A stretch of DNA of 34,332 nucleotides from Desulforamulus aquiferis. Lineage in GTDB: Bacteria; Bacillota; Desulfotomaculia; Desulfotomaculales; Desulfotomaculaceae. Every line of letters starts with the position of its first letter. Position 1 is the first letter of the stretch. The translations under genes were made by a program, and so were the position numbers. The notes beneath the pieces were generated by a model, which did not search any database, had not been told where the DNA came from, and was given only the letters and a program-made list of their open reading frames with translations. The stretch is taken from assembly GCA_004143605.1 (NCBI GenBank), contig AWVY01000036.1:23629-57960 (forward strand), in the 5' to 3' direction. Of the stretch, positions 6,570 to 32,264 are shown piece after piece.

Positions 6570-6619
6570 CAGCATATGAGGTGTCATTATAAAAGCAAGG
6601 CTGGAAGGGAGAGGAAAAT

Positions 6620-12336: not shown

Positions 12337-12397
12337 GTCGAACAATTGTAGATGTCCAATTCTTAACTGTTTGCCTCTCCTCGGGAGGAACAGTTCA

Positions 12398-12806: not shown

Positions 12807-12814
12807 AAATGTAA

Positions 12815-12985
12815 ATAAAACCAGCAGGTGCCCCATGGGGAGAATAGGGAATCAGGTGCAAGTCCTGAGCGGTCCCGCCACTGTAAACGGGTAGTTTAGC
12901 ACTGGAAAGCCACTGGCCTAAAGGCTGGGAAGGCGGTGCTAAATAATGAGCCGTGGAGCCAGGAGACCTGCCTGTCCTGGTTGAA
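12815..12985 (+). promoter_or_regulatory. Cobalamin riboswitch controlling cobT
   Basis: Classic B12 element: GGGAATCAGGTGCAAGTCCT, GAGCGGTCCCGCCACTGTAA, GGAAAGCCACTGG, GAGCC, and CCAGGAGACCTGCC. The closing stem pairs CCAGCAGG near 12821 with CCTGTCCTGG near 12971. A strong terminator hairpin follows at 13005, so control is at transcription. Confidence 0.96.
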
Positions 12986-13004
12986 TAATCTGAGGATGAT
13001 GGAA

Positions 13005-15036: not shown

Positions 15037-15121
15037 AGATTCGTAGACGATATAAAATAAGTACGTATACAAATCTAATTAAAGCTAAAAATATTGTTAA
15101 AGATAATAATCTAGAATGAGA

Positions 15122-15142
15122 CTTAATGTAAATTATATTAAG
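15122..15142. promoter_or_regulatory. Inverted repeat upstream of paralogue 2
   Basis: Arms CTTAAT and ATTAAG flank a central palindromic TAAATTA with one unpaired base on each side. It lies 20 bases before the start codon, between the PerR-like gene and paralogue 2. It is not a PerR box. No good -35/-10 pair was found nearby, so it could be an operator or an RNA structure. Confidence 0.35.
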
Positions 15143-15161
15143 TAGAAATGGAGGAATAAAC

Positions 15162-15425
15162 ATGGAAAACGAACGTACTATGTGCATTAATATTTCTGAA
15201 AATGATAAAAAATACTTCGAGAGAATGGTTGAGTCCCAGGGGATCTCCCCAGGGGATCTATTTAAAAAATATCAAGAGAATTATCTATTAAATATGGAAG
15301 ATGAGAACTATGATAACACAGGACTAAATCTGGGCTACAATAAAGCTAAGCATATTTATCAAACTTGCAGGGAAAGTGATCCAGATAATACAGGTATCAA
15401 TGTCGGCTATAATCAAGAGAGATAA
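15162..15425 (+). CDS. Small protein with RHH-like N-terminus and repeated TG-GY motif (paralogue 2)
   Basis: 87 aa, intact, clearly homologous to the protein at 14254 over its full length: both share TMC-x-NISE, FER, GIS-x-G-x-LF-x-KYQ, then NTGLNLGY and NTGINVGY separated by an acidic spacer containing YQ. The shared layout implies duplication around the PerR-like gene. GGAGGAATAAAC precedes the ATG. It ends in a terminator. I do not recognise a characterised homologue. The conserved N-terminal MC and the two glycine-tyrosine repeats are the residues to test. Confidence 0.8.
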   Translation: MENERTMCINISENDKKYFERMVESQGISPGDLFKKYQENYLLNMEDENYDNTGLNLGYNKAKHIYQTCRESDPDNTGINVGYNQER

Positions 15426-15436
15426 AAAATACTTGT

Positions 15437-15469
15437 AAGGCGAGGATTAAATCCCGCCTTTTCTATTTT
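15437..15469 (+). terminator. Intrinsic terminator after paralogue 2
   Basis: Stem AAGGCG(a)GGAT / ATCC-CGCCTT with one bulge and a T-rich tail, closing the PerR-linked cluster. Confidence 0.8.
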
Positions 15470-15597
15470 GTCAGGAAAGAATGAAATCTGCCAGTAGACC
15501 AATATGTTTACTTCACTGCTATAATCTTTTCCTTATATAAACTAATAAATTAAAGATACTAGTAGTAGGACTTTAAATCCGATGGGGAGGTGCTGTA

Positions 15598-15780
15598 ATG
15601 ACTAGCAAATTAAAAAGAGGTTTGCCAGGTACCCCTTTTAACAAAGGAGCCAAATATATGCAGGAAGCAGGGGGTGAAATTGGCTTCTCAGGTCGCGGTA
15701 AGGTGCAGGGAAATACCGATGCCTTGTCAAATACAGCCCCGGAGGTGCAAAAGGCCCCAAACAGGTTCTTAATTATGTAG
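15598..15780 (+). CDS. Hypothetical 60-residue protein
   Basis: Begins after a very strong GGGGAGGTGCTGTA site. Glycine-rich and basic at the N-terminus (KLKRGLPGTPFNKGAKYMQE, then GGEIGFSGRGKVQGNTDALSN), no hydrophobic segment, no family I recognise. It stands alone, about 130 bases after a terminator and followed by a weak CCAGG-CCTGG hairpin. The strong translation start supports it as a real gene; an overlapping frame on the other strand has no such site. Size and composition would suit a small sporulation or coat-associated protein, but this is a guess. Confidence 0.6.
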   Translation: MTSKLKRGLPGTPFNKGAKYMQEAGGEIGFSGRGKVQGNTDALSNTAPEVQKAPNRFLIM

Positions 15781-15860
15781 CCAGGTTTATCCTGGCCCTT
15801 TATCTTTTGCCAGGGTTGAAAGACTGATAATAAAAATCGCTTAATAAATATTGACAAAAT

Positions 15861-15898
15861 AAAAAGACTATTCTTAGATATTTGAGAATAGTCTTTTT
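15861..15898. terminator. Intrinsic terminator hairpin, bidirectional
   Basis: Perfect 14-bp stem AAAAAGACTATTCT / AGAATAGTCTTTTT with a 10-base loop. It can end transcripts in either direction. From here to 16170 I see no gene, only AT-rich spacer. Confidence 0.85.
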
Positions 15899-16178
15899 GC
15901 CCCAAGTATTTATTTTTCTTCAGGAATATAGATGTATCTAAAGGCAACATCTGCAAAATGAAGAAATTTTTCAAATAATGAGCGCATTAGCTGCACCTTC
16001 TTTCCGGGGGCCAGTTATTTATCTATATTTAGGATACAGGTATTTTATATAAAAGTAAAGGGAACCAGTTCTTAAAATAATTCGTGATTGCTCCATATTT
16101 CTCAATATTACTAGTATGGTAATACCACCTAAAAGTTTATTTAAGGAAGCATTTTATACAATTAACAAAATAATATAC

Positions 16179-16207
16179 TTGACTATATTAATTTAAAATG
16201 ATATAAA
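16179..16207 (+). promoter_or_regulatory. Sigma-A promoter for the second iron alcohol dehydrogenase
   Basis: TTGACT (16179) and TATAAA (16202) with a 17-base spacer, about 140 bases before the gene. The leader between holds the inverted repeat at 16269. Confidence 0.65.
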
Positions 16208-16268
16208 ACAGTTTTATTTGTGCAAAAAACACTTGCTCTTTTCTACCACTCATAATATTTGATAACTA

Positions 16269-16282
16269 GTTAGAGTGCTAAC
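16269..16282. promoter_or_regulatory. Inverted repeat in the leader of the second iron alcohol dehydrogenase
   Basis: GTTAG-N4-CTAAC, located between the promoter and the gene. A possible operator for the response regulator encoded downstream or for another factor. One half (GAGTGCTAA) looks like half of a CIRCE site, but no partner is present. Confidence 0.3.
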
Positions 16283-16345
16283 AAAAGGAAAATAAAGGAA
16301 GATGATGAATATATTTAGTAAATAACTTAAGGGGCTGATGTGGCT

Positions 16346-17498
16346 ATGATGTTAGTACAACAGTTCAGAATACCAGAAATTATCTTTGGCAGAGGCTCTA
16401 TCAAACAGGTGGGGTTTTGTGCCAGAGGGTAGGGGCAGAAAAATTTTTCTAATAACGGACCGGGGGATTTTGCAGGCAGGTTGGATAGATGTAGTGTTAC
16501 CCTGTCTGAAAAAGGAGGGTATTGCCTATGAAATATGGCATAACCTTACCCCCAACCCCAAAGATTATGAGGTGGAAGAGGCTACCCGCATCTACCTAGA
16601 ATCAAATTGTGATGCAATAGTGGCGGTAGGGGGCGGGAGTCCAATAGATGTGGCAAAGGCAGTAGCTATCATGCTACTCACCAGGCTCAATTCATGATTA
16701 TGAAGGAGTAGATAAAATATCTAACCCCCTTCCCCCAATGATTATGGTACCCAGTACTGCTGGTTCAGGTGCGGATATCACACAATTTGCTGTAATTGTT
16801 GATAGCCTGCGACAGGTAAAAATGATAATGATGAGTAAATCTCTGGTTCCTGACATATCAATTACTGACCCGCTGGTTCTCACCACCAAAGATCCCCAGC
16901 TAACTGCTAATTCCGGGATGGATGCCCTGGCCCATGCAATTGAGGCCTATGTGTCAGTTGCTGCAAATTTCCTCACCGATTCCTATGCCCTCACCGCCAT
17001 CCGGCTTATCTCGGCCTATCTTGGCAAATCTGTGGCCAGTAAAACAAATCTTGAGGCTAAGGATGCAATGGCCAAGGCAAGTCTTCTTGCCGCCATTGCT
17101 GCATCAAATGCCTTATTGGTGCTGTCCACGCCATGGCCCATCAGGTAGGTGGAAAGTTTGACTTACCCCATGGGATGGCTAACGCAATATTATTGCCCCA
17201 TGTTATGGAATATAACTATCCTGCTTGTATTGAAAGGTTTGCTGAGATTGCCGAAGCAATGGGTGAGCCTCCAGGAAATAAAAACCTTCGGCAGAGGGCA
17301 AAGGTTGCCATTGAGTCGGTGAGGATACTAGCTAGGGAAGTTGGGATAGACGAAAACTTTTCAAAAGCTGGGTACAGTTTTTCAGAGGAAAATAACCTGG
17401 TTTTAAGCACCAATGCTTCAAAGGATTCTTGCCTTATAACTAATCCCAGGGATGCTGGGACAAATGATATCTATGAGATATTCCGGCGTGCCTTTTAA
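16346..17498 (+). CDS. Iron-containing alcohol dehydrogenase (five frameshifts)
   Basis: Second group III Fe-ADH, 385 aa after repair. NAD motif VGGGSPIDVAKA; metal ligands in GMDALAHAIEAY and VHAMAHQVGGKFDLPHG; ends NDIYEIFRRAF. Five one-base losses: near 16411 (repair SIKQVGVLCQRVGAEK), 16439 (EKIFLITDRG), 16673 and 16681 (IMATHPGSIHDYEGVDKI), and 17118 (NALLGAVHAMAHQ). The PIDV form of the motif sets it apart from the DhaT-like copy at 6620. Substrate is unknown; primary alcohols are likely. It is followed within about 14 bases by the sensor kinase gene, which suggests joint transcription. ATG at 16346 or 16349 may be used. Confidence 0.9.
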
Positions 17499-17511
17499 AT
17501 TAGGGGAGGAG

Positions 17512-19460
17512 ATGAGGCCAGTGGCCCAAAGATTAAGGGCAGTTAATCGGAAAGGGCAGATTAGTCAAGCTAATCAGGCAATTGGTATAATGGAGCTCTT
17601 TAACCAACGGGAGGATATTCCCTACCCAAATGATTTGTTAGTTAAAAACTCTGCCTTGGAGAGACTTGGGGGAGTTAAGAATTCAGCAAAAACTCACTAT
17701 AGTGAACTCAAGAAGAGTGTAGCCCAGATGCAAAAATGCAACATCAATTTAACTAAGTCACAAAGGGAAATAGAAGGTCTATATCAATTGCTTAAAAAAA
17801 AGGCTGATCAAACCCTGGCTATTCTGGATGTTTCCAGGGCAGTAAGCAATATTTTACCCTTCGACCAGATTTTACAGAAGACCAGTACCTTAGTTTCCCA
17901 GGTCTTAGGTCCGGTGGAATGTGCACTTTATAGTGCCAGGCAAGGAATGGGGAAAGGTGAGGAAGCCTGGTCCAGTGTAATAAAAAATAAGCTCCCCCAG
18001 AAATATTCCGAGCATTATGAAAAGGGTCCCCACTTTTTGGCCTTGCCACTTTTTCCCGGGGAAATGTTATTGGCGTTTTATCCATTAAAAGGGAAGGGGA
18101 GCTTCCTTTTACCCAGGAGGAAGTTGAGCTTTGTACAGGTATTGCCAGTCCTGTGGCGGTTGCCATTGAGAATAGAACACTGGTTGAAAAGTTAGAGAAG
18201 GAAAGTCTTCGTTTAAAAACTGCCCTGCTATCATTAAAAGTAATGTCAGATAATCTGGCCATGCTAAATCAAGGGGTAGAACCATTATTGCTGGCCATAG
18301 GCGAATCACTGCTGGAGATAACCGATGCACAATATGCTGTGCTTTTAACGAGGACAGACAAACTTGTCAGTATTCACGTACCTAAGCCACTCCCAGAAAA
18401 ACAAAGCCTGGATGACTATTTTTCTTCTTGGTTAGACCAATTGAACGCTAAGGATTTACCTTGTCTTTATGGCATTGGCTCTCAACAGTTAAAGGATGAT
18501 ACCGTATTAGACTTTTTACCACTAAGATACGGTTTGAAGAATATCGTAGCTTTCCCGATGATTACCAGAGAAAAAATTCTGGGTCTGATACTACTACTCT
18601 TTAACAATTACAGGGGGATGAGGGGTGTCAGTCGATTCTACAAATTTTGGGGAATCAAACAGCAATAGTCCTGGAAAATGCAAGATTATTTGAGGACACC
18701 ATTTATTTAAAGGACAATGCCGAATCCCATTATAAAATTGTCTGTCAGCAAAAGGAACAGCTAGAACAAAAAAATCAAGAACTGAAGAATATGTACAATA
18801 TTCTATTTCGTGCTCGGGAGGAACAGATTTTATCTCAAGAAAGGAACCGCATTGCCGGGGATTTGCACGATAATGTTTTGCAGATTCTATTTGCCATAGG
18901 ACTTCATTTTGAATGGTGCTTTAGTGAACTTTCCACTAACTCCCCAGTGTATGCAAAACTGAAATATTTAGAGGATCTTGTCAATAAAGCTGTGCAAGAA
19001 ATCCGTAAAGTTATCTGTGAGTTTAGCACATTGGAAGCATCCCTAAGCCTTAGGGATAGTATTGAGGGTTTAGTAAGGGACTTAAATCAGGCTGGCTCGG
19101 TTCAAATTTGTGTCAACACCTTCGGCAAAGCCTCCCTTTACCTAGTGTTGTCAGAAATATAGCCTACCGCATTGTCCAGGAAGCCTTAGTAAATTCCCTG
19201 CGTCATGCTTCAGCCTCTAGAATAGATGTAAATATATCTTTTGGTGAAAAGAGGCTGGAAATATTAGTGTGGGATAATGGTGTGGGTATTCCGGAAAACA
19301 CAATAGAGAGCCTTTCTAGTGATGATAAAAAGTTTGGTTTGAAAACATGCTGCAACGGGCACAGTATTTAAATGGTATTCTCAAGGTCGGCAGATCAAAA
19401 TCTGGCGGGGTAGAGATAATGGCCGTAATCCCCATAGAAGGAGTTGAATATGATGGATAA
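17512..19460 (+). CDS. Cytoplasmic GAF-domain sensor histidine kinase, NarX/DegS type (four frameshifts)
   Basis: About 650 aa after repair, no membrane segments. Order: a coiled-coil N-terminal part (about residues 45-100), a first GAF-like domain from about 103 (ILDVSRAVSNILPFDQIL), a second from about 245 (LLLAIGESLLEITDAQYAVL), a HisKA_3 box with phospho-acceptor His in ERNRIAGDLHDNVLQILFAI (about 452), and HATPase_c with N-box YRIVQEALVNSLRHA, G1 WDNGVGI and G2 FGLKNML. Losses near 18058, 18613, 19134 and 19342 split it; repair restores LPLFPGGNVIGVLSIK, QSILQILGNQTAIVLE, GKASPLPSVVRNIAYR and GLKNMLQRAQYLNG. Start ATG 17512 has a cramped GGGGAGGAG; GTG 17521 is an alternative. The 3' end overlaps the response regulator by 11 bases. 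Confidence 0.9.
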
Positions 19461-22592: not shown

Positions 22593-22621
22593 TGGACAGA
22601 TGATGTTTTCTAAATTATAAT
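22593..22621 (+). promoter_or_regulatory. Sigma-A promoter for the M24/M20/transport operon
   Basis: TGGACA (22593) and TATAAT (22616) with exactly 17 bases between. It lies 180 bases upstream of the first gene, leaving a long leader with a terminator-like hairpin. Confidence 0.7.
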
Positions 22622-22679
22622 TAGAGCAATTCAAAGTGCAACGATCTTCAAAGAAGAAGAACAACTAAAAATGTCAAAG

Positions 22680-22728
22680 AAGACAGAGTGAGCAGCCTAG
22701 ACAGCTGTTTACCTGTCTTTTTTTTATT
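22680..22728 (+). terminator. Terminator-like hairpin with alternative pairings in the operon leader
   Basis: AGACAG at 22699 pairs with CTGTCT at 22713 and is followed by eight T, a standard terminator lying between the promoter and the first gene. An upstream AAGACAG copy at 22680 can pair with the same partner, and CAGC/GCTG (from 22693) forms a competing stem. This could be an attenuator; otherwise it simply ends larE read-through and a second promoter lies after it. Confidence 0.5.
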
Positions 22729-22739
22729 CCCAAGAATTG

Positions 22740-22758
22740 TCGACAATCGACAATCGAC
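22740..22758. repeat. Short tandem repeat TCGACAA
   Basis: About 2.7 copies of a 7-base unit (TCGACAA), starting inside the palindrome TTGTCGACAA, between the leader hairpin and the first gene. Confidence 0.5.
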
Positions 22759-22763
22759 GGAGA

Positions 22764-22778
22764 TAGGTAATTAGGTAA
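22764..22778 (+). promoter_or_regulatory. Paired TAGGTAA half-sites before the M24 gene
   Basis: TAGGTAA-T-TAGGTAA, two exact direct copies spaced 8 bases apart. TAGGTAA is also the core of the perfect 24-base palindrome at 30379 beside the GntR-type regulator gene, making this a candidate operator at the head of the operon. Confidence 0.45.
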
Positions 22779-22799
22779 ATGATAGGGGTGGATGGATTA

Positions 22800-23967
22800 A
22801 TGCAGCTATTTGATATGACAGAATACCAGCAAAGGCTAATGAAAGTAAAGGAAAAAATGAATGACCAGGGTATTGATGTACTGCTGGTAACTGACCCTGC
22901 CAATATGAACTACCTTACAGGGTATGATGGATGGTCTTTTTATGTTCACCAGCTTTTGATCATCCTCCTTGACGAAGCACAGCCCATTTGGTTGGCAGGG
23001 GACAGGATGGTAACGGGGCCAGACTTACCACCTGGCTCGAGCCCAATAACATCAGAGCCTACACAGATGATTATGTTCAATCCTTGATTAAGCATCCTAT
23101 GGATTTTGTAGCAGATATATTGAAGGAAAAAGGACGGGCCAATTCAACCATAGCAGTTGAAATGGATACATACTACTTTACCGCCATGTGCTATGAAAGA
23201 TTAAAATTGGGATTATCCAACGCACGTTTTAAGGATGGTACATTACTGGTCAATTGGGTACGGATTGTTAAATCAGAAAAAGAAATTGAATGTATGAAGA
23301 AAGCTGCCTGCATTGTGGAAAGGGTTATGCAAACAGGTATTGATTCAATCAATGAGGGAGTTAGGGAATGCGATGTGGTTGCAAATATCTATCATGCCCA
23401 GATAAGTGGTACAACAGAGTTTGGCGGAGATTATCCTGCCATCGTTCCCCTGCTGCCAGCCGGGGAGAAAACTTCCACGCCTCACCTGACCTGGAGTGAT
23501 AATAAGTATAAAAAAGGGGATACAGTAATCCTTGAACTGGCTGGCTGCTATAAACGTTACCATGCTCCCCTGGCCAGAACCCTTTCCCTAGGAGAGCCTT
23601 TGCCTAAAGTAAAGGAATTATCGGAGATTGTAGTGGAGGGTATTAATGCTGCTCTAGCAGTGATTAAGCCGGGTATTACCTGCCAAGCCATTGAGGCTGC
23701 CTGGAAAAGGGTGCTAGAAAAAAGTGGGTTTATTAAGGATTCACGCATTGGCTATTCAATGGGTCTTAATTATCCACCTGATTGGGGCGAGCATACTGCA
23801 GCTTACGACCTGGTGATATGACTATTCTCCGACCCAATATGACTTTTCACCTGATACCAGGCATCTGGTGCGAGGACTTTGGGGTTGAAATAAGCGAGCC
23901 CTTTAGGGTAACGGAAAATGGTTGTGAAACCTTTGTGGATTTTCCAAGGAGATTAATTACCAAGTAG
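22800..23967 (+). CDS. M24-fold hydrolase, ectoine hydrolase (DoeA/EutD)- or creatinase-like (two frameshifts)
   Basis: Pita-bread-fold protein of 389 aa after repair. N-terminal domain DVLLVTDPANMNYLTGYDGW; C-terminal domain TPHLTWSDNKYKKGDTVILE, AGCYKRYHAPLARTLSLG, IGYSMGLNYPPDWGEHTASL, NMTFHLIPGIW, WCEDFGVEISEPFRVTENGC. These blocks match ectoine hydrolase (DoeA/EutD)-type proteins. The Asp-Asp metal pair of true M24 peptidases is replaced (Glu and His in ELAG-x-x-x-RYH), suggesting a non-metal hydrolase as in creatinase. Losses near 23015 (repair RMVTGARLTTWLEPNN) and at 23810 (repair EHTASLRPGDMT). ATG 22800 is chosen for its AGGGGTGG site; ATG 22779 is in frame. First gene of the operon. 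Confidence 0.85.
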
Positions 23968-24004
23968 CAATTTAAGAGGAAGTTCTTAGTGGGGGCGGTT
24001 AATA

Positions 24005-25186
24005 TTGGATATAAAAAAAGAAGTAGCTTCATTAAATAAAGAGCTGATTAACCTTCGACGGGATTTACACATGCATCCTGAATTGGGTTATGAAGAGGTT
24101 AGGACTTCAAAGCTGGTGCAGATTACTTGAGGGACTGCGGTTTGGAAGTAACAAATGTTGCAAAAACCGGTGTTGTTGGACTGTTAAGGGGGGCAAAACA
24201 GGGTAAAACGCTTTTGCTCAGGGCAGACATGGATGCCCTGGAGCAAACGGAACTAAACGATATCGGCTATAGATCTCTCCATGAGGGAAAAATGCATGCC
24301 TGTGGTCATGATGGACATACAGCTATGCTAATGGTTACAGCCAAGATATTGGCTAAGTATAGGGCTCAGATCGATGGGAATATTAAATTTGTTTTTCAGC
24401 CAAATGAGGAAACTGCCGGGGCTCTAGATATGATTAAGGAAGGGATTTTGGAAAGTCCTAGGGTTGACGCAGCCTTTGGCTTACATCTCTGGACACCCTT
24501 AGAGAGCGGCAAATTGGTGTTGTGGCTGGCCCAACAATGGCAGGCAATGAGGAGTTTGAGCTAACCATCCATGGGCGGGGGGGACACACTGCTTCTCCCC
24601 AGGCTTCCATAGACCCCATTATGGCAGCAGCTACCATTGTGCAAAGCATACAGCTGCTTCAGACCAGGGAAGTAAGTGTCCTTAGTCCAACCCTTATTAT
24701 CTTTGGCAAAATCAAGGGAGGAACAGGAAGAAATATTATAGCTGACAAGGTGGAGCTAGGGGGTACCATACGTTATCTTTACGAAAATGAAGACGAAAAG
24801 AAGGAAGAACTGAAAGCTAGTTTTGAGAGAATCATAGGTGGTATTTGTACAGCTACCCGCACTAAATATTCATTAACCTACATACCCAGTAACCCCAGCA
24901 TAATTAATGACCCATCCATGGTTGAACTGGTTAGAATTTCTGCCCAAAAACCCTTGGTTGTGATCAAAATGTGGTGCCCCAGTTGGTTATGGCAGGGGAA
25001 GATTTTGCGGAGTTTAGCCGTAGGGTTCCCAGTGCCTTTTTCTTTATCGGGACGGGCAACAAGGAGAAGGGCACTGATTATCCCCATCATCACCCCCAGT
25101 TTAATATTGACGAAGATACCCTGGCAACGGGTGTTGAAATGCATGTAAGGAATACATTGGCCTTTTTACAGGGGACAAACTCCTAA
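24005..25186 (+). CDS. M20-family amidohydrolase/deacetylase (three frameshifts)
   Basis: 394 aa after repair. Dinuclear metalloenzyme of the IlvE-neighbour/hippurate-hydrolase type: RRDLHMHPELGYEEVRTSKL, LLLRADMDAL, ACGHDGHTAML (Cys and His ligands), QPNEETAGA (Glu pair), LHLWTP, and the late His in HHHPQFNIDEDTL. The start is TTG 24005 after GGGGGCGG, since all other in-frame codons back to a stop are unusable. Losses near 24118 (repair SKLVADYLRDCG), 24511 (SGKIGVVAGPTMAGNEEFEL) and 24946 (AQKTLGCDQNVVPQLVMAGE). In ectoine catabolism a relative (DoeB) deacetylates N-acetyl-diaminobutyrate, which fits the gene before it, but other N-acyl amino acids are possible. Confidence 0.87.
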
Positions 25187-25222
25187 TATGTCAGGGACAG
25201 TAGAAGAGAGGGAGAGTGGGGA

Positions 25223-26442
25223 ATGTTTAACAATTTAGAAGAGATAAATTTACTCATCAAACAGCATGAAGCTTACCGTCAGCAGTGCTTAAACCTAATA
25301 GCCTCTGAAAATTATTCCAGTCAAACAGTTCGCAATTATCTTACCTCGGACCTGGGGAACAGGTATGGCTGTTATGCGGGGTAGATTTAACAGCCAGGGA
25401 GTATAGGGGTAATAGATATATCCAGGAGCTAGAGGCTAAGACTCAAAAACTGGTGGGTGAGGTCTTTAAGGCTGACTATGTTGATTTAAGGCCGGTTAGC
25501 GGACATGTTGCCGGTATTGCAACCATATTGGGCCTGCTGTCCCCTGGAGATCTTGTTTTGGAAATACATTTAAGGGATTGGGGCCATGGAATGGCACAGC
25601 TGATGGTAGGAGCACCCCATTTTGGGCAAACACTGGAGTTTGACGACATTCCCTTTGATCAAAACCGAATAGTTGACCTGGCAATGCTGATTGAAGATGC
25701 AAGAATGCAGGCCGGCAATGGTAATTTTCGGAGGTTCGGGCATGCTGTTTCCTGAGCCTGTGGCAGAAATAAAGGCCGTAGCTGAAAAAATGGGAATACT
25801 TGTAGCCCATGACTCTTCCCATGTCACTGGTCTGATTGCCGGCGGGGTTTATCCAAACCCCCTTGACCAGGGAGCGGACATCATGTTTGGCAGCACCCAC
25901 AAATCCTTTCCCGGCCCCCAGGGTGGGTTCATCGCTACCAGAGATTTTAATATTTATGAGCGAGTAGGGAATGTACTTGCGTCCCTGGTTACCAGTCACC
26001 ATTTAAACAGGCTGCCGGCCTTGGCTGTGGGGATGCTGGAGATGAAAGAGTTTGGCAAGGCCTATGGAGAACAAATAATTAGAAACTCAAAGACCCTGGC
26101 AAGGCCATGGAAGAAGCCGGCTTGACAGTTATTGGCGCAACAAAGGGCTATTCAGAAACCCATCTTATTCTTGTGGATGTTAGTAAATATGGCAGTGGAG
26201 TTCACATATCCAAGATTTTGGAGAGTTCAGATATCCTTTGTTCCGACGATTTTGGCCAGTTAGATAGGGAGCTAAGGATTGGTACTGCTGAGGTTACCCG
26301 TAGGGGAATGGAGGAACAGGAAATGAAAAGAATTGCTGATTTCTTTAAGAGGTTAATTATTGAACAGGAAAATCCCGAGCAAATTAAGGAAGAGGTTAAT
26401 CTTTTTGCCAGTAAATATTCTGGATGTCGGTACAGTTTATAA
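25223..26442 (+). CDS. Serine hydroxymethyltransferase-like PLP enzyme, archaeal type (four frameshifts)
   Basis: Fold-type I PLP enzyme, about 407 aa after repair. Family marks: NLIASENYSSQTVRNYLTSD, the Schiff-base lysine in MFGSTHKSFPGPQGGF, the HDSSHVTGLIAGG Asp/His that stack on PLP, and a C-terminal domain ELRIGTAEVTRRGM. Losses near 25378 (repair YGCYAGVDLTAREYRG), two near 25701-25705 (one reading is DAKKCRPAMVIFGGSG) and 26101 (TLAKAMEEAGLTV). It differs from housekeeping GlyA (STHKSF for the usual TTHKTLRGPRGG) and sits inside a catabolic and transport operon, so it may split a beta-hydroxy amino acid or supply one-carbon units from the pathway product. Substrate unknown. Confidence 0.83.
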
Positions 26443-26521
26443 AGAGGTTAAATTCAAGGGACAAAGGGGGTTAGAAGGTTTTAAATATTTCATTAATTAA
26501 TGATGAAGGAGTGGATTTTGA

Positions 26522-27416
26522 ATGAAAAAAAGAATGCTGTTTGGATTAGTTGTAAGCTTTATGTTGGCTCTTATGCTGGTAGGCTGCGGAGGCAACACTA
26601 AAGAGCAGGGTGGGGAGAATGTAAAGGCAGAAAGCACCTTGGAAAAGGCAAAGAGTCAAGGCTATATAACGGTGGGTTTTGCCAATGAAGCACCCTATGC
26701 ATATGCCACCCCGGATGGAAAGCTAACTGGCGAAGCCGTTGAAGTTGCCAGAGCTATCTTTAATAATATGGGCATTCAAGAAATGAATGGTGTACTTACT
26801 GAGTTCGGTTCTTTGATTCCAGGTCTCAAAGCTAACCGTTTTGATGTCATCACTGCCGGAATGTATATCACTGAGCCCCGGAGCAAGGAAGTTGAGTTTG
26901 CTAACCCTGAGTATACAATTGGTGAGGCTATAGCTGTAAAGGCTGGCAATCCATTGAATTTGCATAGCTATCAGGATATTGCAGCCAACTCCAAGGTGAA
27001 GATTGGTGTTATGGCTGGTGCCGTAGAATTTGATATGGTGGTGAAATCCGGTGTAGCCAAAGAGCAGATTGTAACAGTTCCGGATCAACCTTCCGCCTTA
27101 GCTGCCCTCCAGGCCGGCAGGGTGGACGTTATTACCATGTCCGGTCCTGCTTTACAGACCATGTTGGATAACGCTAAGGACTCTAGTTGAGAGGGTTATG
27201 GATTTTACTCAACCAATTATTGATGGAAAAGCAGCCCAGTCTTTCGGTGCAGCTGCCTTTAGAAAAGAGGATAAGGATTTTGCTGAGGCATATAACCAGG
27301 AACTGGAAAAGCTGAAGCAATCAGGACAACTTCTCGAAATATTAAAGGAATTTGGCTTTACTGAGCAGGAGTTTCCAGGGGATATGACGGTGGAAAAGGT
27401 ACTGTCAGGTCAATAA
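26522..27416 (+). CDS. Polar amino acid ABC transporter lipoprotein, EhuB-like (two missing bases)
   Basis: 298 aa after repair. Lipoprotein signal with lipobox LMLVGCGG; the mature protein is a type II periplasmic-binding fold: LEKAKSQGYITVGFANEAPY, FGSLIPGLKANRFDVITAGM, QAGRVDVITMSGPAL. The pattern (ITVGFANEAPYAY, GSLIPGLKA, DVITAGM) is closest to ectoine/hydroxyectoine-binding EhuB. The break at 27187-27189 needs two bases (restoring KDSSLERVMDFTQPIIDGKA). AAGGAG precedes the ATG. It is followed by a stable hairpin and the two permease genes. Ligand by homology only. Confidence 0.88.
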
Positions 27417-27423
27417 TCAACAG

Positions 27424-27451
27424 GCCGGAGGTATCCTTTGATACCTCCGGC
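27424..27451 (+). other. Stable intercistronic hairpin after the binding-protein gene
   Basis: Perfect 12-bp stem GCCGGAGGTATC / GATACCTCCGGC with a CTTT loop and no U-run. It lies between the binding-protein gene and the first permease gene. Such 3' stems commonly protect the binding-protein message so that it is made in excess over the permease. Confidence 0.75.
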
Positions 27452-27483
27452 TAACTCCGAACTTGTCGGTAAGTAAAAGGAGT

Positions 27484-28130
27484 GTGATTATCATATTTGA
27501 GTTGCTACCAGGACTGCTGCCTGGCGTACGGATCACCTTGCTGTTGACAGCCTTGTCGGCCTCCTTGGCACTGATTATCGCTTTATAGTCGGATTTGCTC
27601 GTCTTTCAAAGTATCGGCCGGTCAGATTCCTGGCAACGGTTTTTGTGGAGTTTTTCCGGGGTACATCCTTACTGGTGCAATTGTTCTGGGCCTATTTTGT
27701 ATTACCCTTCTTTGGCATAGAATTAACTGCCATGCAGGCGGGGGTATTAACCTTAGGCTTACACTATGGTGCTTATGCTTCAGAAATAGTTAGGAGTTCA
27801 ATATTAGCCATACCCAAGGGTCAGACCGAGGCAGGTATTTCTTTAAATATGACCAGAGTGCAAATTATACAAAGGATTATCTTGCCCCAAGCTTTTTTAA
27901 GGATGTTACCACCCTTTGGCAATACCTTCATTGAAATGTTGAAGGGTACTTCCCTGGTGTCTTTAATTACTCTATCAGATTTAATGTTCCAGGGGGTTAT
28001 GATACGATCAACCACCCTGAGAACTACAGAAACCTTTGCCCTTGTATTACTGCTCTATTTTATTATCGCCATACCCTTTACCCTTGGGGTTCGTTGGTTG
28101 GAGAGAACATTGGTTAGAGGGAGGGCTTAA
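27484..28130 (+). CDS. Amino acid ABC transporter permease, EhuC-like (one frameshift)
   Basis: 215 aa after repair, with about five hydrophobic segments. HisMQ-type permease: VEFFRGTSLLVQLFWAYFVL and the EAA loop EIVRSSILAIPKGQTEAGIS. One base is missing near 27582 (repair ALIIAFIVGFARLSKYRP). The start is unsure: GTG 27484 has AAGGAG almost on top of it, so an ATT/ATC codon a few bases on, or an undetected missing base, is possible. It pairs with the second permease, which starts 2 bases after this stop. Confidence 0.88.
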
Positions 28131-28132
28131 CT

Positions 28133-28783
28133 ATGTGGGATTGGAATTATACCTTGAGTTTCATACCGGAGCTTTTAGGGGCCCTTAAAATAACTATAAG
28201 CGCAACCTTTGTTGGATTTTTTTTGGCTTGTCTCCTTGGCTTGCCCCTTACTATGGCAAGACGATCTAGGTGTAAACCCTTATCTTTAGTTACCGCTGGA
28301 ATTATAGAATTTATCAGAAGCACACCTCTGTTGGCACAAGTTTATTTTATATTTTATGTTTTTCCTAACTATGGACTATCCCTATCCCCCTTTGCAGCTG
28401 GCGTAATTGCCCTGGGCATTCATTATGCCACCTATTTATCGGAAGTTTACAGAGGTGGAATTGAGGCTATACCTAAGGGGCAATGGGAAGCAGCGAGGGC
28501 CTTAAATTTTTCAAAGAGCCGTACTTGGATTAAAATCATACTTCCACAAGCTATTCCTCCCATTTTGCCTGTGATGGGGAATTATTTAATTGGTATGTTT
28601 AAAGAAACACCGCTGCTTTCAGCCATTACATTGGTGGAGATACTTCAAGTTGCGAAAATAACCGGCGCCCAGTCATTTAGATATCTGGAACCGATTACCA
28701 TTGTAGGTATATTGTTTTTAGTGCTAAGCTATATCTCCTCCATAGGGGTTCAACGTTTGGAAACAAAGTTGAACAGGAGATAA
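28133..28783 (+). CDS. Amino acid ABC transporter permease, EhuD-like
   Basis: 216 aa, intact, five hydrophobic segments. HisMQ-type membrane subunit with [20 protein letters not shown] and EAA loop [27 protein letters not shown] precedes the ATG, which lies almost directly after the EhuC-like stop. The two permeases probably form a heterodimer with the ATPase encoded next. Confidence 0.93.
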
Positions 28784-28796
28784 GGAAGGTGACTTT

Positions 28797-29617
28797 ATGA
28801 AATTGAATATAACCAAGCCAATTATAAAGTATCGGAATATCAGCAAATCCTTCGGAAGTCTTAGGGTGCTTAATGATCTTAGCCTTGATATAGCTCCCAA
28901 TGAAAAGGTGGCCCTCATTGGGCCTAGCGGCTCGGGCAAGACAACCCTGGGTCGTTTGCTAATGACCTTGGAAAGACCGGACGCTGGAACCATTGAGGTG
29001 GATGGGGAAATGCTCTGGCACAAGGAAGTAAATGATCAGCTAATGGCGGCTGACGAAAAACACTTACATCGGATAAGAAGTAAAATAGGTATGATTTTTC
29101 AACAGTTCAACCTGTTCCCTCACATGAATGTTTTGCGAAATGTCACTGAAGCCCCCATTCATGTACTTGGTTTGTCAAAGGAAGAGGCTAAGGAGCATGC
29201 AGTTGCCATGTTGAAAAAGGTTGGACTGGGTGAAAGGATGGAACATTATCCATCCCAATTGTCAGGAGGTCAACAACAACGGGTAGCCATAGCCAGGGCC
29301 CTTGTTATGAAGCCGAAGGTGATGGTGTTTGATGAGGTAACCTCAGCCTTAGATCCAGAATTGGTAGGGGAAGTTTTGGCAGTTATTAAGGAGATAGCAT
29401 CCGAGGGGGAAATGACCATGCTTTTGGTTACCCATGAAATGGATTTTGCCAGGGAGGTGGCTGACAGAATCTTGTTTATGGATGGAGGAGCAATTTTAGA
29501 GCAGGGTCCACCGGAGCAAATATTTGGCAATTCACAAAATCCTCGTACCAGGGATTTTTAAGTAGATTTGTTCGTAATAGGGGAGTCGACTACTGCCATT
29601 CGGCAGTAAATTCCTAA
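28797..29617 (+). CDS. Amino acid ABC transporter ATPase, EhuA-like (probable late frameshift)
   Basis: HisP/GlnQ-type ATPase. Walker [10 protein letters not shown] from residue 42, Q-loop [17 protein letters not shown], signature [15 protein letters not shown], Walker [16 protein letters not shown]-loop [17 protein letters not shown]. As written the frame stops at 29561 after PRTRDF (254 aa). Family members end RTRDFLSR-, so one T is probably missing from the run at 29555-29559; repair adds [10 protein letters not shown] and runs to 29617 (273 aa). If not, the C-terminus is merely a few residues short. Last transporter gene of the operon. Confidence 0.92.
29591..29608. promoter_or_regulatory. 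Inverted repeat near the 3' end of the ATPase gene
   Basis: TACTGCC-ATTC-GGCAGTA, 7-bp arms with a 4-base loop, 80 bases before the GntR-type gene. No T-run follows. It may be a regulator site or an mRNA stem. Confidence 0.35.
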
Positions 29618-29638
29618 GAGACCAAAGGAGGGGGCAAA

Positions 29639-29686
29639 ATGTTCCCAAATGATTTAGCCAGTGGTGGAATAATGGAGAGGTGTTAA
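29639..29686 (+). CDS. Possible 15-residue leader peptide abutting the GntR-type gene
   Basis: AAAGGAGGGGG followed 5 bases later by an ATG opens a frame encoding MFPNDLASGGIMERC, whose TAA stop touches the next gene's ATG. The ribosome-binding site is stronger than that of the regulator gene. It could couple translation or simply be a chance frame. Both frames are in phase, so a sequence error could also hide a longer N-terminus. Confidence 0.4.
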   Translation: MFPNDLASGGIMERC

Positions 29687-30383
29687 ATGGAACAATATAA
29701 ACAGCTGACAAATACTAGTTTAAACACCATCGTTTCAAAATATTTAAGGGATAAGATTCTTTTGGGGGAATTGAAGGGCGGGGAAAGAATTGTGGAGTCT
29801 GATATAGCTGATTTGCTGGGGATTAGCAGGGCCCCCGTGAGAGAAAGTATTCAAGAATTAGCTAGTCAGGGATTAATCAAGTCAATTCCCCGTAAGGGTA
29901 ACTTTGTGGTTAAGTTTACCATGAGTGATGTTGCAGAAATATTTGATATCAGACTGTTGATGGAAAACAGTGTGATTGAAATTCTTATTAATGAAGACAA
30001 GCTTACAAATTATGATATCTCGAGCTAAAGGCCATAGTGATGAGATGACTGTAATATCTAAGGGCGAAGACGAATTTGCCAATAAAATGATTATGCTTAA
30101 CGAAAAGGATGTTGAGTTTCACAGCTATTTGTGGCAAAGATCCGGTAGTGCCAGAAGGGTTAAGATTTTGCAAGATCTGCACTTGCAATTGCGCATAGCC
30201 ATGGTTATTGATACCAAGTTAACGGGCAATCTAGATAAAACCGCCAGGGATCATTATGAAATTATTAAGCACCTGGAACAAAAGGATATTGAGAATTGTG
30301 TAAAAGCCATTCGGGATCATATCATAAGTCAAGAGAAGCCTCCCTTGAAAAGGCTGACACAAAAATCAGAAGGTTACCTTTAG
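29687..30383 (+). CDS. GntR/FadR-family (FCD) transcriptional regulator (two missing bases)
   Basis: 232 aa after repair. N-terminal winged HTH: IVSKYLRDKILLGELKGGER, ESDIADLLGISRAPVRESIQ, GLIKSIPRKGNFVV. C-terminal all-helical FCD domain: VAEIFDIRLLMENSVIE, FHSYLWQRSGSARRVKI, ARDHYEIIKHLEQKD, AIRDHI, giving the metal and ligand-binding Asp/His pattern. Losses near 30021 and 30039 (repair YDISELKAIVDEMTVISKG). FCD regulators usually sense a carboxylate or amino acid substrate of the adjacent pathway. A perfect 24-base palindrome begins at its stop codon, and its core recurs in front of the operon. GGAGAGG precedes the ATG. Confidence 0.9.
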
Positions 30384-30402
30384 GTAAGTTAACTTACCTA
30401 AA
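30379..30402. promoter_or_regulatory. Perfect 24-base palindrome overlapping the GntR-type stop codon
   Basis: Each 12-base arm reads TTTAGGTAAGTT on its own strand, with no spacer. It ends 9 bases upstream of the -35 of the next gene's promoter. No loop and no T-run, so it is more likely a DNA site than a terminator. Its core TAGGTAA occurs twice at 22764. Confidence 0.6.
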
Positions 30403-30411
30403 AGTGCATAC

Positions 30412-30440
30412 TTGTTCTATATTTAATAATGAGCTATACT
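30412..30440 (+). promoter_or_regulatory. Sigma-A promoter of the flavin reductase gene
   Basis: TTGTTC (30412) and TATACT (30435), 17-base spacer; transcription would start 40 bases before the gene. The palindrome at 30379 lies just upstream. Confidence 0.65.
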
Positions 30441-30486
30441 CCTAGGAAAAAGGTGATAGTATCTTATAATTTTAAGGAGGAAAACA

Positions 30487-31119
30487 ATGAAAGTAGTAGC
30501 TTTTAATGGAAGTCCTCACAAAGAAGGAAATACCTACCAAGCCATCAAAATCGTGGCTGATGAACTAATCAAAGAGGGTATTGAGACTGAAATTATTCAC
30601 GTGGGCAACAAGGAGATAAGGGGCTGTATTGCCTGTGGCCAATGTGCTAAGAATAAAAATGAAAGATGTGCTATTTCGGATGCGGTTAATGAATGGATTC
30701 AGATGATGAAAAATGCTGATGGCATTATTCTAGGATCACCTGTACATTATTCAGCCATTGGAGGCACTATGAAATCATTTTTAGATAGGGCCTTCTATGT
30801 GGCAGGTAGTAATAACGGGATGTTAAGGCATAAAATTGGTGCATCGGTGGTGGCCGTAAGACGCTCCGGCGGGCTACCAACCTTTGAACAGCTTAACAAT
30901 TATATCCTTTACTCAGAAATGTTTATGCCTACGTCAAATTACTGGAATGTTATTCATGGAACTAGACCAGGAGAAGCAGTACAGGATGAAGAGGGCGTTC
31001 AAATTATGCGGGTTCTTGGTAAAAACATGGCCTGGCTTATGAAGGTTATTGAACAAGGCAAGGGTTCCATTAAGCCACCAGAAAAGGAAGCTAAGAAGTT
31101 CTTTAATTTTATCCGCTAA
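30487..31119 (+). CDS. NAD(P)H-dependent FMN reductase / iron-sulfur flavoprotein-like
   Basis: 210 aa, intact. Flavodoxin-like fold: FNGSPHKEGNTYQAIKI is the FMN phosphate loop, and ILGSPVHYSAIGGTMKSFLD the second FMN loop. GCIACGQCAKNKNERCAISD carries the cysteine set seen in iron-sulfur flavoproteins, though spacing should be checked before claiming a cluster. Strong AAGGAGG start. The gene has its own promoter but follows the regulator. It may supply electrons to the pathway or be an unrelated redox enzyme. Confidence 0.88.
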   Translation: MKVVAFNGSPHKEGNTYQAIKIVADELIKEGIETEIIHVGNKEIRGCIACGQCAKNKNERCAISDAVNEWIQMMKNADGIILGSPVHYSAIGGTMKSFLDRAFYVAGSNNGMLRHKIGASVVAVRRSGGLPTFEQLNNYILYSEMFMPTSNYWNVIHGTRPGEAVQDEEGVQIMRVLGKNMAWLMKVIEQGKGSIKPPEKEAKKFFNFIR

Positions 31120-31141
31120 ACCTTTCTAATGAATAAGAGTA

Positions 31142-31171
31142 AGGGGATGACTTTAAGTTGTCCTCTTTTTT
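31142..31171. terminator. Intrinsic terminator after the flavin reductase gene
   Basis: AGGGGATGAC pairs with GTTGTCCTCT (two or three G-U pairs), 5-base loop, then a run of T. It overlaps the end of the convergent FAD oxidoreductase gene. Confidence 0.75.
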
Positions 31172-32264
31172 ATTCTGCCGATATTAACTTGTTTACTTTC
31201 TTTATGACGCTTCCGAAGATATCTGTTAAATTAAATCCGCTATTATAGATTGTTTGCTTGACCCCGGGGGTGTCTATTAATGTTATTATTCTGTCGAAAT
31301 CTTTATTGGTTAGGCTTTTCATCCGGTCCCTAAAGGCTGAGATATTTTCAATGTGATCCTGAAGTGGTTTTACCATAGCTTCATATTCTTTTCCCTTGAT
31401 GATTGCCCTTGCTGCAAATATCCCGCTAATCAGTGCTCCTACACTGCCTATACCAGTTAACCTTTCCGTTAAGCCTGCTGCACGACCTGTTAAATAGATA
31501 TTATCTTTTTGAAACCTTGTTACCTTTCCGACGGAAAATGGCGGTGGCTTAATATGGTATAAGAACTCAAGGTGCTCAAGACCTTCTGTAGCCAAGAAAT
31601 GAGTAAAATTGGAATCTATTTCAGATATGCTGCTCTCAAAGTTATAGATTTTTACCACAGCCTGGGTGTTATTGATAGGAGTTACCCTGGCATAACCTGT
31701 TCCAGAATAATCGGTATTAAAATATATAGTGGAGGAGCCAGGTGTAAAATCACCTAAGGCAAGGCCACCATAGATATTAACAAGATCCTTCTGCTCCCAT
31801 ACGCCAAGCTCCTTTGCTACAGTTTCTTTGCCTGTGGCAATTACCACGGCATCGTATTTTTTAGATAATTCTTTATAATCAGCAGGTCTGTTGTAATGCA
31901 TAGCAGTTTGCTGAAGCTCTCGGAGTAATTGGTTTTCTAGTGAATCAACATATTTTCCCCGGGCTAAAAAATAGCCTAGATTTCCTGAAACCTCAGCCCT
32001 AGCGTTAGGAGATTTTAATACAAAATGATTACATTCAAACAGGGGCTTAATATCTAAACCATAACTTTTGGCCATATACTTCCTGATATCTTTCATTTTA
32101 CTCTCAAATATATTTAGTTGTACCGATACAGAGGGCCAAATCCACCCAACAGATTTGTCCCTTTCAAAGACGTCTGCATTTACGCCAAGTCTTTCACATT
32201 CAAGGGCACATGCCAAGCCAGCAGGACCGGAACCTATGATGGCTATCTTCAGTTTTTTATTCAT
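31170..32264 (-). CDS. FAD-dependent oxidoreductase
   Basis: 364 aa, intact. N-terminal Rossmann FAD motif IAIIGSGPAGLACALECERL and E-rich end (VFERD) of the second strand; a second dinucleotide segment KYDAVVIATGKE; and the late motif NIYLTGRAAGLTERLTGIGS, which in this superfamily contacts FAD. Related to geranylgeranyl reductase/NAD(P)/FAD-type monooxygenase-like proteins, but no specific substrate can be named. Poor AAGGGG start. It lies downstream of the membrane iron-sulfur gene on the same strand and may work with it, though a hairpin separates them. Confidence 0.85.
   Translation of the reverse strand: MNKKLKIAIIGSGPAGLACALECERLGVNADVFERDKSVGWIWPSVSVQLNIFESKMKDIRKYMAKSYGLDIKPLFECNHFVLKSPNARAEVSGNLGYFLARGKYVDSLENQLLRELQQTAMHYNRPADYKELSKKYDAVVIATGKETVAKELGVWEQKDLVNIYGGLALGDFTPGSSTIYFNTDYSGTGYARVTPINNTQAVVKIYNFESSISEIDSNFTHFLATEGLEHLEFLYHIKPPPFSVGKVTRFQKDNIYLTGRAAGLTERLTGIGSVGALISGIFAARAIIKGKEYEAMVKPLQDHIENISAFRDRMKSLTNKDFDRIITLIDTPGVKQTIYNSGFNLTDIFGSVIKKVNKLISAE

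What the first reader, a model, noticed from the sequence alone, without database searches (positions are those of the whole stretch)
22593..31172. Uptake-and-hydrolysis operon joining an M24 hydrolase, an M20 deacylase, an SHMT-like enzyme and an Ehu-like transporter
The M24 (ectoine hydrolase/creatinase-like), M20 and Ehu-like transporter genes parallel aerobic ectoine catabolism (Ehu, DoeA, DoeB), but the later aerobic steps (DoeC, DoeD and the AsnC/MocR-type regulators) are absent and an archaeal-type SHMT-like enzyme, a GntR/FCD regulator and a flavin reductase stand in their place. In an anaerobe this points to a different route for ectoine or for another N-acylated or amidino amino acid, perhaps feeding one-carbon units to folate. 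I consider this the best candidate for an undescribed system.
Basis: partly seen in the sequence, partly recalled or inferred. Interest (0 to 1): 0.78.

Follow-up and report, generated by a model that had tools for sequence, protein, structure and literature searches.

The report
Hydroxyectoine breakdown operon with an aldolase
These genes look like a system by which oxygen-avoiding bacteria take up the salt-stress protectant hydroxyectoine and split it, with an aldolase derived from a serine-metabolism enzyme, into acetate and glycine-sized pieces that they can ferment, a route I did not find described.

Summary
The operon is real: DoeA/EutD-like hydrolase (M24), M20 deacylase, SHMT-like PLP enzyme, EhuBCDA transporter, GntR regulator. 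Six of these eight genes carry frame breaks, in an assembly broken elsewhere too. All four Ehu subunits pass curated ectoine/hydroxyectoine cut-offs. Close SHMT-like relatives were found at six places in four genomes, each beside EutD-like M24 and M20 genes; five of the six also carry a tungsten-type aldehyde oxidoreductase (AOR), the window does not. One further EutD/Ehu operon carries an unrelated L-threonine aldolase plus an AOR instead. The SHMT-like protein keeps PLP/retro-aldol residues but has lost folate-transfer residues, so one-carbon feeding is unlikely. Best reading: hydroxyectoine is hydrolysed and deacetylated to 3-hydroxy-2,4-diaminobutyrate, which is cleaved to glycine and aminoacetaldehyde; in relatives AOR would oxidise the aldehyde to a second glycine. 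Transport and the first two steps rest on homology; the cleavage is inferred; the aldehyde's fate in the window organism is open. Nothing was assayed.

The parts
22593..22621 (+). promoter-like site TGGACA-17-TATAAT (11 of 12), upstream of an intrinsic terminator
   Evidence: consensus match only, number of sites in the region no higher than in shuffles (18 against 19.2)
22676..22723 (+). strong hairpin with T-run: intrinsic terminator, either of the upstream gene or an attenuator of the operon
   Evidence: z -5.25, 0 of 200 shuffles fold as well; no credible Rfam family
22779..23967 (+). M24 hydrolase, DoeA/EutD-like ((hydroxy)ectoine hydrolase), 2 frame breaks; start may be 22800
   Evidence: end read; residue aligned to DoeA Glu255 is Glu
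24005..25186 (+). M20 amidohydrolase, inferred N-acetyl-(hydroxy)-DABA deacetylase, 3 frame breaks (start codon uncertain)
   Evidence: ends read; best NCBIfam CpsA, then TIGR01891, then DoeB2
25223..26442 (+). SHMT-like PLP enzyme, inferred folate-independent aldolase, 3 frame breaks
26522..27416 (+). EhuB-like binding protein, 1 frame break
   Evidence: 227.8 bits, cut-off 190.9; nearest PDB 2q88; end read
27424..27451 (.). perfect 12-pair hairpin between ehuB and ehuC
27484..28130 (+). EhuC-like permease, 1 frame break (start codon uncertain)
   Evidence: 216.5 bits, cut-off 196.95
28133..28783 (+). EhuD-like permease, intact
   Evidence: 308.8 bits, cut-off 205.2
28797..29561 (+). EhuA-like ATPase, intact
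   Evidence: 370 bits, cut-off 345.4
29687..30383 (+). GntR-type regulator (FCD type by likeness to relatives), 1 frame break
   Evidence: GntR relatives at 5 of 6 SHMT-like places; FCD domain found in L013's copy
30487..31119 (+). flavoprotein/flavin reductase-like ORF (named by look), probably not part of the conserved system
   Evidence: only one weak match (34% over 131 aa, L159) among the ORFs compared

Best explanation
An uptake and degradation operon for hydroxyectoine (probably also taking up ectoine). EhuBCDA imports the solute. The M24 enzyme hydrolyses the ring to N-acetyl-3-hydroxy-2,4-diaminobutyrate; the M20 enzyme removes acetate, giving (2S,3S)-3-hydroxy-2,4-diaminobutyrate (hydroxy-DABA). 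The SHMT-like PLP enzyme works as a folate-independent aldolase and cleaves hydroxy-DABA to glycine and aminoacetaldehyde. In the relatives an AOR then oxidises aminoacetaldehyde to a second glycine, reducing ferredoxin: net hydroxyectoine to acetate + 2 glycine. A GntR-type regulator probably controls the operon. Shown: gene identities, conserved neighbourhood, loss of folate residues. Inferred: substrate, cleavage, aldehyde oxidation, regulation. In the window organism no AOR of the operon type was found.
For: (1) All four Ehu subunits pass curated cut-offs; the EhuB aromatic box stays aromatic (F24>Y, Y60>F, F80>Y) with E21 and R85 kept (residue list recalled). (2) M24 of L016 nearest DoeA in PDB, E 2.7e-110; the residue aligned to DoeA Glu255 is Glu in 17 of 17 copies compared (of the 23 M24 rows; its role recalled). 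(3) In L016 and L013 the transporter is TRAP type and the nearest chains of known ligand are TeaA/UehA (ligands in PMC5924519, passages). (4) SHMT-like, M24 and M20 lie together at 6 of 6 places, AOR at 5 of 6 (one SHMT-like copy cut by a contig end). (5) G145: a tight run EhuBCDA, MttB-like, L-threonine aldolase (336.8 bits, cut-off 312; 47% to E. coli LtaE), AOR, M24: an unrelated aldolase in the same slot. (6) AOR stands at 6 of 7 places with an aldolase and 0 of 14 other EutD-like places; EutB, RidA, GDH, PanB, MGL at 0 of 6 SHMT-like places. (7) In 4 of 4 intact SHMT-like copies E57, Y64, G124, L127, R235 and N347 (E. coli numbers) are changed; among 79 SHMTs the E. coli letter stands in 79, 68, 79, 78, 79 and 76; PLP and carboxylate residues are kept. 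That Glu is not needed for THF-free L-allo-threonine cleavage (PMC5958214, passage); E. coli SHMT favours L-allo-Thr over L-Thr (PMC3697235, Table 2). (8) EutD makes hydroxy-alpha-ADABA from hydroxyectoine, and EutE 'possibly' hydroxy-DABA (PMC8739950, passages). (9) A glycine riboswitch lies upstream of one relative's operon.
Against: No assay. The window has no AOR beside it, and the AORs of its genome are only 24-37% like the SHMT-operon AORs (42% over one 72-aa piece) and no nearer to G145's than 39%; no glycine/sarcosine/betaine reductase was found there (assembly 72% complete). Six of eight genes are frame-broken, and one break in the SHMT-like gene falls right at the Glu57 loop, so that position cannot be read in the window. 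L016's copy has a Glu one alignment column away from Glu57, so its loss there depends on the alignment. M24 copies score below the DoeA equivalog cut-off (0 of 398 genomes over it). M20 is nearer CpsA than DoeB2. Ectoine itself would give DABA, which an aldolase cannot cleave; no gene for DABA was identified. EutA/racemase-like genes at 2 of 6 places (L015, L016) have no needed role. The riboswitch was found at 1 of 6 places and a second hairpin with T-run (by eye) lies between it and the operon. Selenoprotein-reductase genes near two places (L014; L159 of G145) are of or nearest to the sarcosine type, not glycine.
Confidence: 0.62

Rival explanations
1. Ectoine (not hydroxyectoine) operon in which the SHMT-like enzyme does something else to DABA, such as transamination or racemisation.
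For: Ehu and Tea/Ueh-type systems bind ectoine too (PMC5924519, passages); SHMTs catalyse transamination and racemisation in vitro (PMC3697235, passage).
Against: AOR beside 5 of 6 SHMT-like genes and beside the threonine aldolase in G145 implies an aldehyde product; a threonine aldolase in the same slot points to cleavage of a beta-hydroxy amino acid.
Confidence: 0.18
2. The SHMT-like enzyme feeds one-carbon units to folate.
For: Best NCBIfam hit is SHMT (277 bits against cut-off 335); nearest PDB is M. jannaschii SHMT.
Against: Glu57, Tyr64, Gly124, Leu127, Asn347 are changed in 4 of 4 intact copies (L016 has a Glu one column from Glu57); below the SHMT cut-off.
Confidence: 0.06
3. Creatine or another amidino/N-acyl amino acid is the substrate (M24 as creatinase); sarcosine reductase-type genes lie near two of the places.
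For: L014 has GrdG/GrdF-like genes downstream and L159 of G145 has relatives of them about 6.5 kb before its M20; M20 is of the broad amidohydrolase type.
Against: M24 nearest DoeA by a wide margin; Ehu subunits over ectoine cut-offs; none noticed by eye in the ORF lists of the window, L013, L015, L016 and no BLAST match in L141.
Confidence: 0.06
4. The window copy is a decayed pseudo-operon of no present function.
For: 11 frame breaks in 6 of 8 genes.
Against: Breaks are found across this assembly; codon-position pattern is that of selected genes; this would not touch the relatives.
Confidence: 0.15

Closest known systems
Aerobic ectoine/hydroxyectoine catabolism (EutDE/DoeAB + Ssd/Atf + EutABC, Ehu or Ueh/Tea transport, EnuR/AsnC)
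   Same: EutD-like hydrolase, a deacylase, Ehu or TRAP transporter
   Different: Deacylase is M20; no EutB match at the six SHMT-like places; SHMT-like enzyme and, in relatives, AOR instead; GntR-type regulator of another kind instead of EnuR; products would be glycine and acetate, not aspartate
Putative Bacillota/Clostridia ectoine clusters of PMC13188858 (section 8, first part of section 9 and passages read)
   Same: Divergent EutD, amidohydrolase (abgB), Ehu or Ueh transporters
   Different: Those described in the text have eutB/eutC/atf with thrA and adh and a PucR regulator; the main text has no 'aldolase', 'hydroxymethyltransferase' or 'ferredoxin'; figures and supplements not seen
Serine hydroxymethyltransferase (GlyA; M. 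jannaschii SHMT 4bhd/4uqv)
   Same: Fold (TM 0.85-0.90 to M. jannaschii SHMT) and PLP site
   Different: Folate-transfer residues changed; in a catabolic operon
L-threonine transaldolase of Pseudomonas fluorescens (7k34) and fluorothreonine transaldolase (TIGR04506)
   Same: SHMT-like fold; TIGR04506 is the second-best NCBIfam hit of L016's copy; in the alignment the loop cysteine pairs with a cysteine of 7k34
   Different: About 28% identical; biosynthetic enzymes (recalled); here a hydrolytic, aldehyde-oxidising context
Low-specificity L-threonine aldolase LtaE
   Same: Proposed reaction type; takes the same slot in G145
   Different: Matches other family models than the SHMT-like protein; the two were not compared directly

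Membership tests
EhuABCD ectoine/hydroxyectoine transporter | NCBIfam equivalog cut-offs for EhuA, B, C, D | tested here: met
   all four over cut-off although B and C are partial
EhuABCD ectoine/hydroxyectoine transporter | EhuB ligand residues (Glu21, Phe24, Tyr60, Phe80, Arg85 and one at 133; list recalled) | tested here: inconclusive
   E, Y, F, Y, R kept or conservative; position 133 (Thr in the chain) is V
DoeA/EutD ectoine hydrolase | NCBIfam TIGR02993 cut-off 613 bits | tested here: not met
   window piece 334.9; intact relatives up to 528.8, 0 of 398 genomes over it
DoeA/EutD ectoine hydrolase | nearest solved structure and the glutamate at 255 (role recalled) | tested here: met
   L016's copy; 17 of 17 copies, window included
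DoeA/EutD ectoine hydrolase | hydrolysis of (hydroxy)ectoine | not testable with these tools
   needs an assay
DoeB2 deacetylase (M20) | NF038260 cut-off 550 bits | tested here: not met
   L016 285.6 bits; window pieces 126 and 66.1
SHMT | NCBIfam PRK00011 cut-off 335 bits | tested here: not met
   L016 277.1 bits
SHMT | PLP lysine and carboxylate arginine | tested here: met
   K229, H228, D200, H203, R363 kept in 4 of 4 intact copies
SHMT | folate-transfer Glu57 and pterin residues | tested here: not met
   E57, Y64, N347 changed in 4 of 4 intact copies (L016 has a Glu one column from E57); the window shares YGCY, REY, DWGHG and SDDF but is broken at the E57 loop
Aerobic eut/doe catabolic cluster | EutB-type dehydratase | tested here: not met
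   no tblastn match (E 1e-12) at 6 of 6 SHMT-like places incl. window
Aerobic eut/doe catabolic cluster | Ssd/Atf (DoeC/DoeD) | not tested
   none noticed by eye in ORF lists

The most novel reading that the evidence does not exclude
An undescribed anaerobic pathway, hydroxyectoine to acetate + 2 glycine: an SHMT paralogue stripped of folate chemistry serves as a dedicated hydroxy-DABA aldolase, coupled to a tungsten AOR that saves the oxidation energy as reduced ferredoxin, feeding glycine into Stickland-type (glycine reductase) metabolism; evolution filled the aldolase slot at least twice, with an SHMT-like and with a threonine-aldolase-type enzyme.
Probability: 0.5. Interest if true: 0.75.

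Novelty: new variant of a known kind. Interest (0 to 1): 0.62.

Why it matters
Hydroxyectoine is a common microbial salt protectant, yet how its hydroxyl group is handled is unsettled even in aerobes: the activities of EutABC are called unknown (PMC8739950, passage). A one-step cleavage that needs no dehydration would explain how strict anaerobes could ferment it, and would give SHMT-fold enzymes a catabolic aldolase role. Each step can be tested with purified proteins.

Tried and rejected
Creatinase reading: rejected. Folate feeding: rejected on residues. Glycine reductase beside L014 as proof of glycine formation: withdrawn, the models call it sarcosine reductase. More SHMT-like genes from named genomes: the genome-contig scan gave one close relative only, L016 at 68%; the other 79 kept loci (80 listed of 87 confirmed) are 27-35% alike and served as an SHMT contrast set. 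More relatives: order and class of G142 hold 1 genome, order and class of G209 hold 3; a second phylum search returned G142 and G209 only, of 398; own class 0 of 113 at E 1e-110, where the broken own copy did not ring either; the 144-aa piece found only the own copy among 100 genomes, own included, at E 1e-20; plasmids none at E 1e-60; viral contigs none confirmed. An RNA element before the window operon: nothing credible in Rfam. A structure model of L016's enzyme (mean pLDDT 84.7; lowest blocks 51-60 at 56 and 121-130 at 53) only confirmed the SHMT fold. M24 tree: window and G209 copies group (93/85), but L014's M24 lies elsewhere, so the SHMT-like genes do not travel with one M24 lineage alone.

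Rows dropped: one search listed L155 (second G455 hit, a partial match at a contig edge) and the G000 loci L156-L158; one search left these out, as well as L160. In one search, L147 and L159 are one place; G142 supplies three of the six SHMT-like places, so places are not independent; L145, L151 and L153 are short contigs. A further SHMT-like fragment at the end of G142 C22 was not counted as a place. L149 also has a partial EutB-like match at its end (45% over 203 aa). The first SHMT piece, 25453-25755, gave no family and was not given. The Glu255 check used 17 of the 23 M24 rows.
Full report
What is there. On the plus strand lie, in order, an M24 hydrolase, an M20 amidohydrolase, an SHMT-like PLP enzyme, EhuB, EhuC, EhuD, EhuA, a GntR-type regulator and, after a gap, a flavoprotein ORF. 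Six of the first eight are interrupted by frame breaks, eleven in all. Breaks also occur in neighbouring genes and on other contigs of this 72%-complete genome, and six unbroken segments differ from their G209 counterparts mostly at third codon positions, so I take assembly error as likeliest. A strong terminator hairpin stands before the first gene.

What the operon takes up. All four transporter parts pass NCBI's curated cut-offs for the ectoine/hydroxyectoine system. The EhuB piece is nearest the S. meliloti EhuB structure 2q88 (E 7e-41; next 7e-21; that 2q88 is EhuB from PMC5924519). Residues recalled as its aromatic box are Y, F and Y in the window, and Glu21 and Arg85 are kept; position 133 is not. 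In L016, L013, L015 and L141 the transporter is of TRAP type; for L016 and L013 the nearest binding proteins of known ligand are TeaA and UehA, after 4pfi whose ligand I do not know. L014 has an SSF symporter nearby instead.

First enzymes. The intact M24 of L016 matches DoeA (6twk, 6twj, E about 3e-110) far better than creatinase (3e-16). The residue aligned with DoeA Glu255 is Glu in all 17 copies compared (its catalytic role is recalled). The copies stay below the DoeA equivalog cut-off: none of 398 genomes exceeds it, so this is a divergent EutD group, as also described for Bacillota (PMC13188858, section 8 and first part of section 9). The M20 enzyme is nearest CpsA and yxeP-type amidohydrolases, with DoeB2 third among NCBIfam models.

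Conserved company. In 398 genomes drawn from the phylum, EutD-like genes occur in 18 (E <= 1e-60). The SHMT-like piece rang in 5 at E <= 1e-18; in three of them at 62% identity or more (the window's genome, G209, G142), all three among the 18; the other two hits are 35-36% alike and one of them, L011, has the normal SHMT motif. Fisher p for the overlap 8e-5, taking both draws as the same genomes, which the listed handles bear out. A named relative is the MAG Syntrophomonadaceae STF2_222, L016. In all there are six places: window, L013, L014, L015, L016, L141. At each an EutD-like M24 and an M20 lie in the same run; an AOR at five, not in the window; EutB, RidA, GDH, PanB-like and MGL-like genes at none. 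The SHMT-like gene at L141 is cut by the contig end.

The swap. In G145 the run EhuBCDA, MttB-like, aldolase, AOR, MoaD-like (by eye), M24 is tight and on one strand, with a PucR-like gene (by eye) and an M20 upstream. Its aldolase passes the low-specificity L-threonine aldolase cut-off (336.8 against 312) and the GntG-family cut-off (427.9 against 230), and is 47% identical to E. coli LtaE. Its AOR is only about 34-36% like those of the SHMT-like operons. So two kinds of aldolase fill the same slot. Counting places, AOR stands at 6 of 7 with an aldolase and at 0 of 14 without; by hypergeometric arithmetic 7/54264, about 1e-4, with the caveat that three places share one genome and three contigs are short.

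The SHMT-like enzyme. Against E. coli GlyA and 79 SHMT relatives of the loci, the four intact copies keep Tyr55, Tyr65, Ser175, Asp200, His203, His228, Lys229 and Arg363 but change Glu57, Tyr64, Gly124, Leu127, Arg235 and Asn347; Glu57 is present in 79 of 79 of the contrast set. The loop around Glu57 carries an insertion, and L016's copy has a Glu one column away, so in that copy the loss rests on the alignment. The window shares the tell-tale stretches, but a frame break falls in that loop. The model has the SHMT fold, nearest M. jannaschii SHMT, with the P. fluorescens threonine transaldolase 7k34 also close. The glutamate takes part in folate-dependent serine cleavage but not in folate-free L-allo-threonine cleavage (PMC5958214, passage). 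E. coli SHMT has Km 1.5 mM and kcat 30 per min on L-allo-threonine against 43 mM and 4.3 on L-threonine (PMC3697235, Table 2 passage). [quoted passage not shown]

Proposed chemistry. EutD turns hydroxyectoine into hydroxy-alpha-ADABA and EutE, possibly, this into hydroxy-DABA in Ruegeria (PMC8739950, passages). Native hydroxyectoine is the 5-(S) form (PMC5924519, passage); with 4-(S) from recalled chemistry, ring opening gives (2S,3S)-hydroxy-DABA, which by my own priority-rule reasoning has the L-allo-threonine arrangement. Retro-aldol cleavage gives glycine and aminoacetaldehyde; oxidation by AOR gives a second glycine. Atom balance: C6H10N2O3 + 2 H2O gives acetic acid + C4H10N2O3; this gives C2H5NO2 + C2H5NO.

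Side evidence and gaps. G142's third operon (L141) has a tandem glycine riboswitch at 6527-6719, 460 bases before the regulator gene (RF00504 56.7 bits, gathering score 32; RF03166 101 bits, under its gathering score of 110). It is one of six places, and a second hairpin with T-run lies between (by eye). Selenoprotein B of glycine/sarcosine/betaine reductases occurs in G209, G142 and L016's genome G483 but was not found in the window genome; which of these are glycine reductases was not sorted out. GrdG/GrdF-like genes lie near L014's operon (sarcosine type) and, 53% and 46% like those, in L159 of G145. The window genome has AOR genes, but only 24-37% like the operon type (42% over one 72-aa piece), so how it handles the aldehyde is open.

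Print status. Searches for ectoine with anaerobic SHMT degradation, hydroxyectoine anaerobic degradation (9), ectoine with glycine reductase (20), ectoine with aldehyde ferredoxin oxidoreductase (63), hydroxyectoine with aldolase (71) and ectoine utilization in Clostridia (72) listed no paper that, by title and abstract start, describes this route; of these papers I opened passages of two. The nearest paper, PMC13188858, names putative clusters in Clostridia, but its main text holds none of 'aldolase', 'hydroxymethyltransferase' or 'ferredoxin'; its figures and supplements were not seen. The 2020 EutDE structure paper was not held.

Noticed in passing
L139, L144, L146, L148, L154 (EutD-like M24 beside EutB-like, RidA and GDH; PanB-like in four of the five): A second kind of EutD cluster: EutB-type dehydratase with RidA, a glutamate-dehydrogenase-like enzyme and, in L144, L146, L148, L154 (also L152, L153 without EutB), a PanB-like protein with an unnamed ORF between it and the GDH-like gene. 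Function of the PanB-like protein here is unexplained.
   Followed up: partly
L140 7645-8853, L149 11193-12392, L150 6458-7630: A third kind: EutD-like M24 and M20 beside a methionine gamma-lyase-like PLP enzyme (L150's copy 473 bits against a cut-off of 550), which could split DABA by gamma-elimination.
   Followed up: partly
L141 6527-6719: Tandem glycine riboswitch followed by a terminator-like hairpin, with no gene between it and the operon's GntR regulator.
   Followed up: partly
L013 13287-14117, L015 902-1543: A putative cyclase (PF04199) gene lies next to two of the six SHMT-like operons; role unknown.
   Followed up: no
G142:C22:15475-15909: A further SHMT-like fragment at the contig end, about 3 kb after the full copy; may join another contig or be an extra copy.
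   Followed up: no
window 12387-12557 (-) and 12811-12989 (+): Two divergent cobalamin riboswitches (96 and 122 bits), near ORFs that by eye look cobalamin-related; the window's left part carries B12-type dehydratase- and microcompartment-like ORFs, also by eye.
   Followed up: no
whole window and G000 contigs C10, C57, C62, C64: Genes split by frame breaks through much of what was seen of the assembly, while eight same-genus genomes are listed as 94-100% complete against 72% here.
   Followed up: partly
L147 4014-5477: A trimethylamine-methyltransferase-like (MttB family, TIGR02369 450 bits, cut-off 525) gene inside the Ehu/aldolase/AOR operon of G145; two more such ORFs by look at 14901-17841.
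   Followed up: no
L014 13686-16088; L159 2868-5364: Sarcosine reductase GrdG/GrdF-like genes (L014's GrdF with in-frame TGA and a SECIS element) downstream of L014's M24 and SSF symporter; relatives upstream of the G145 operon.
   Followed up: no
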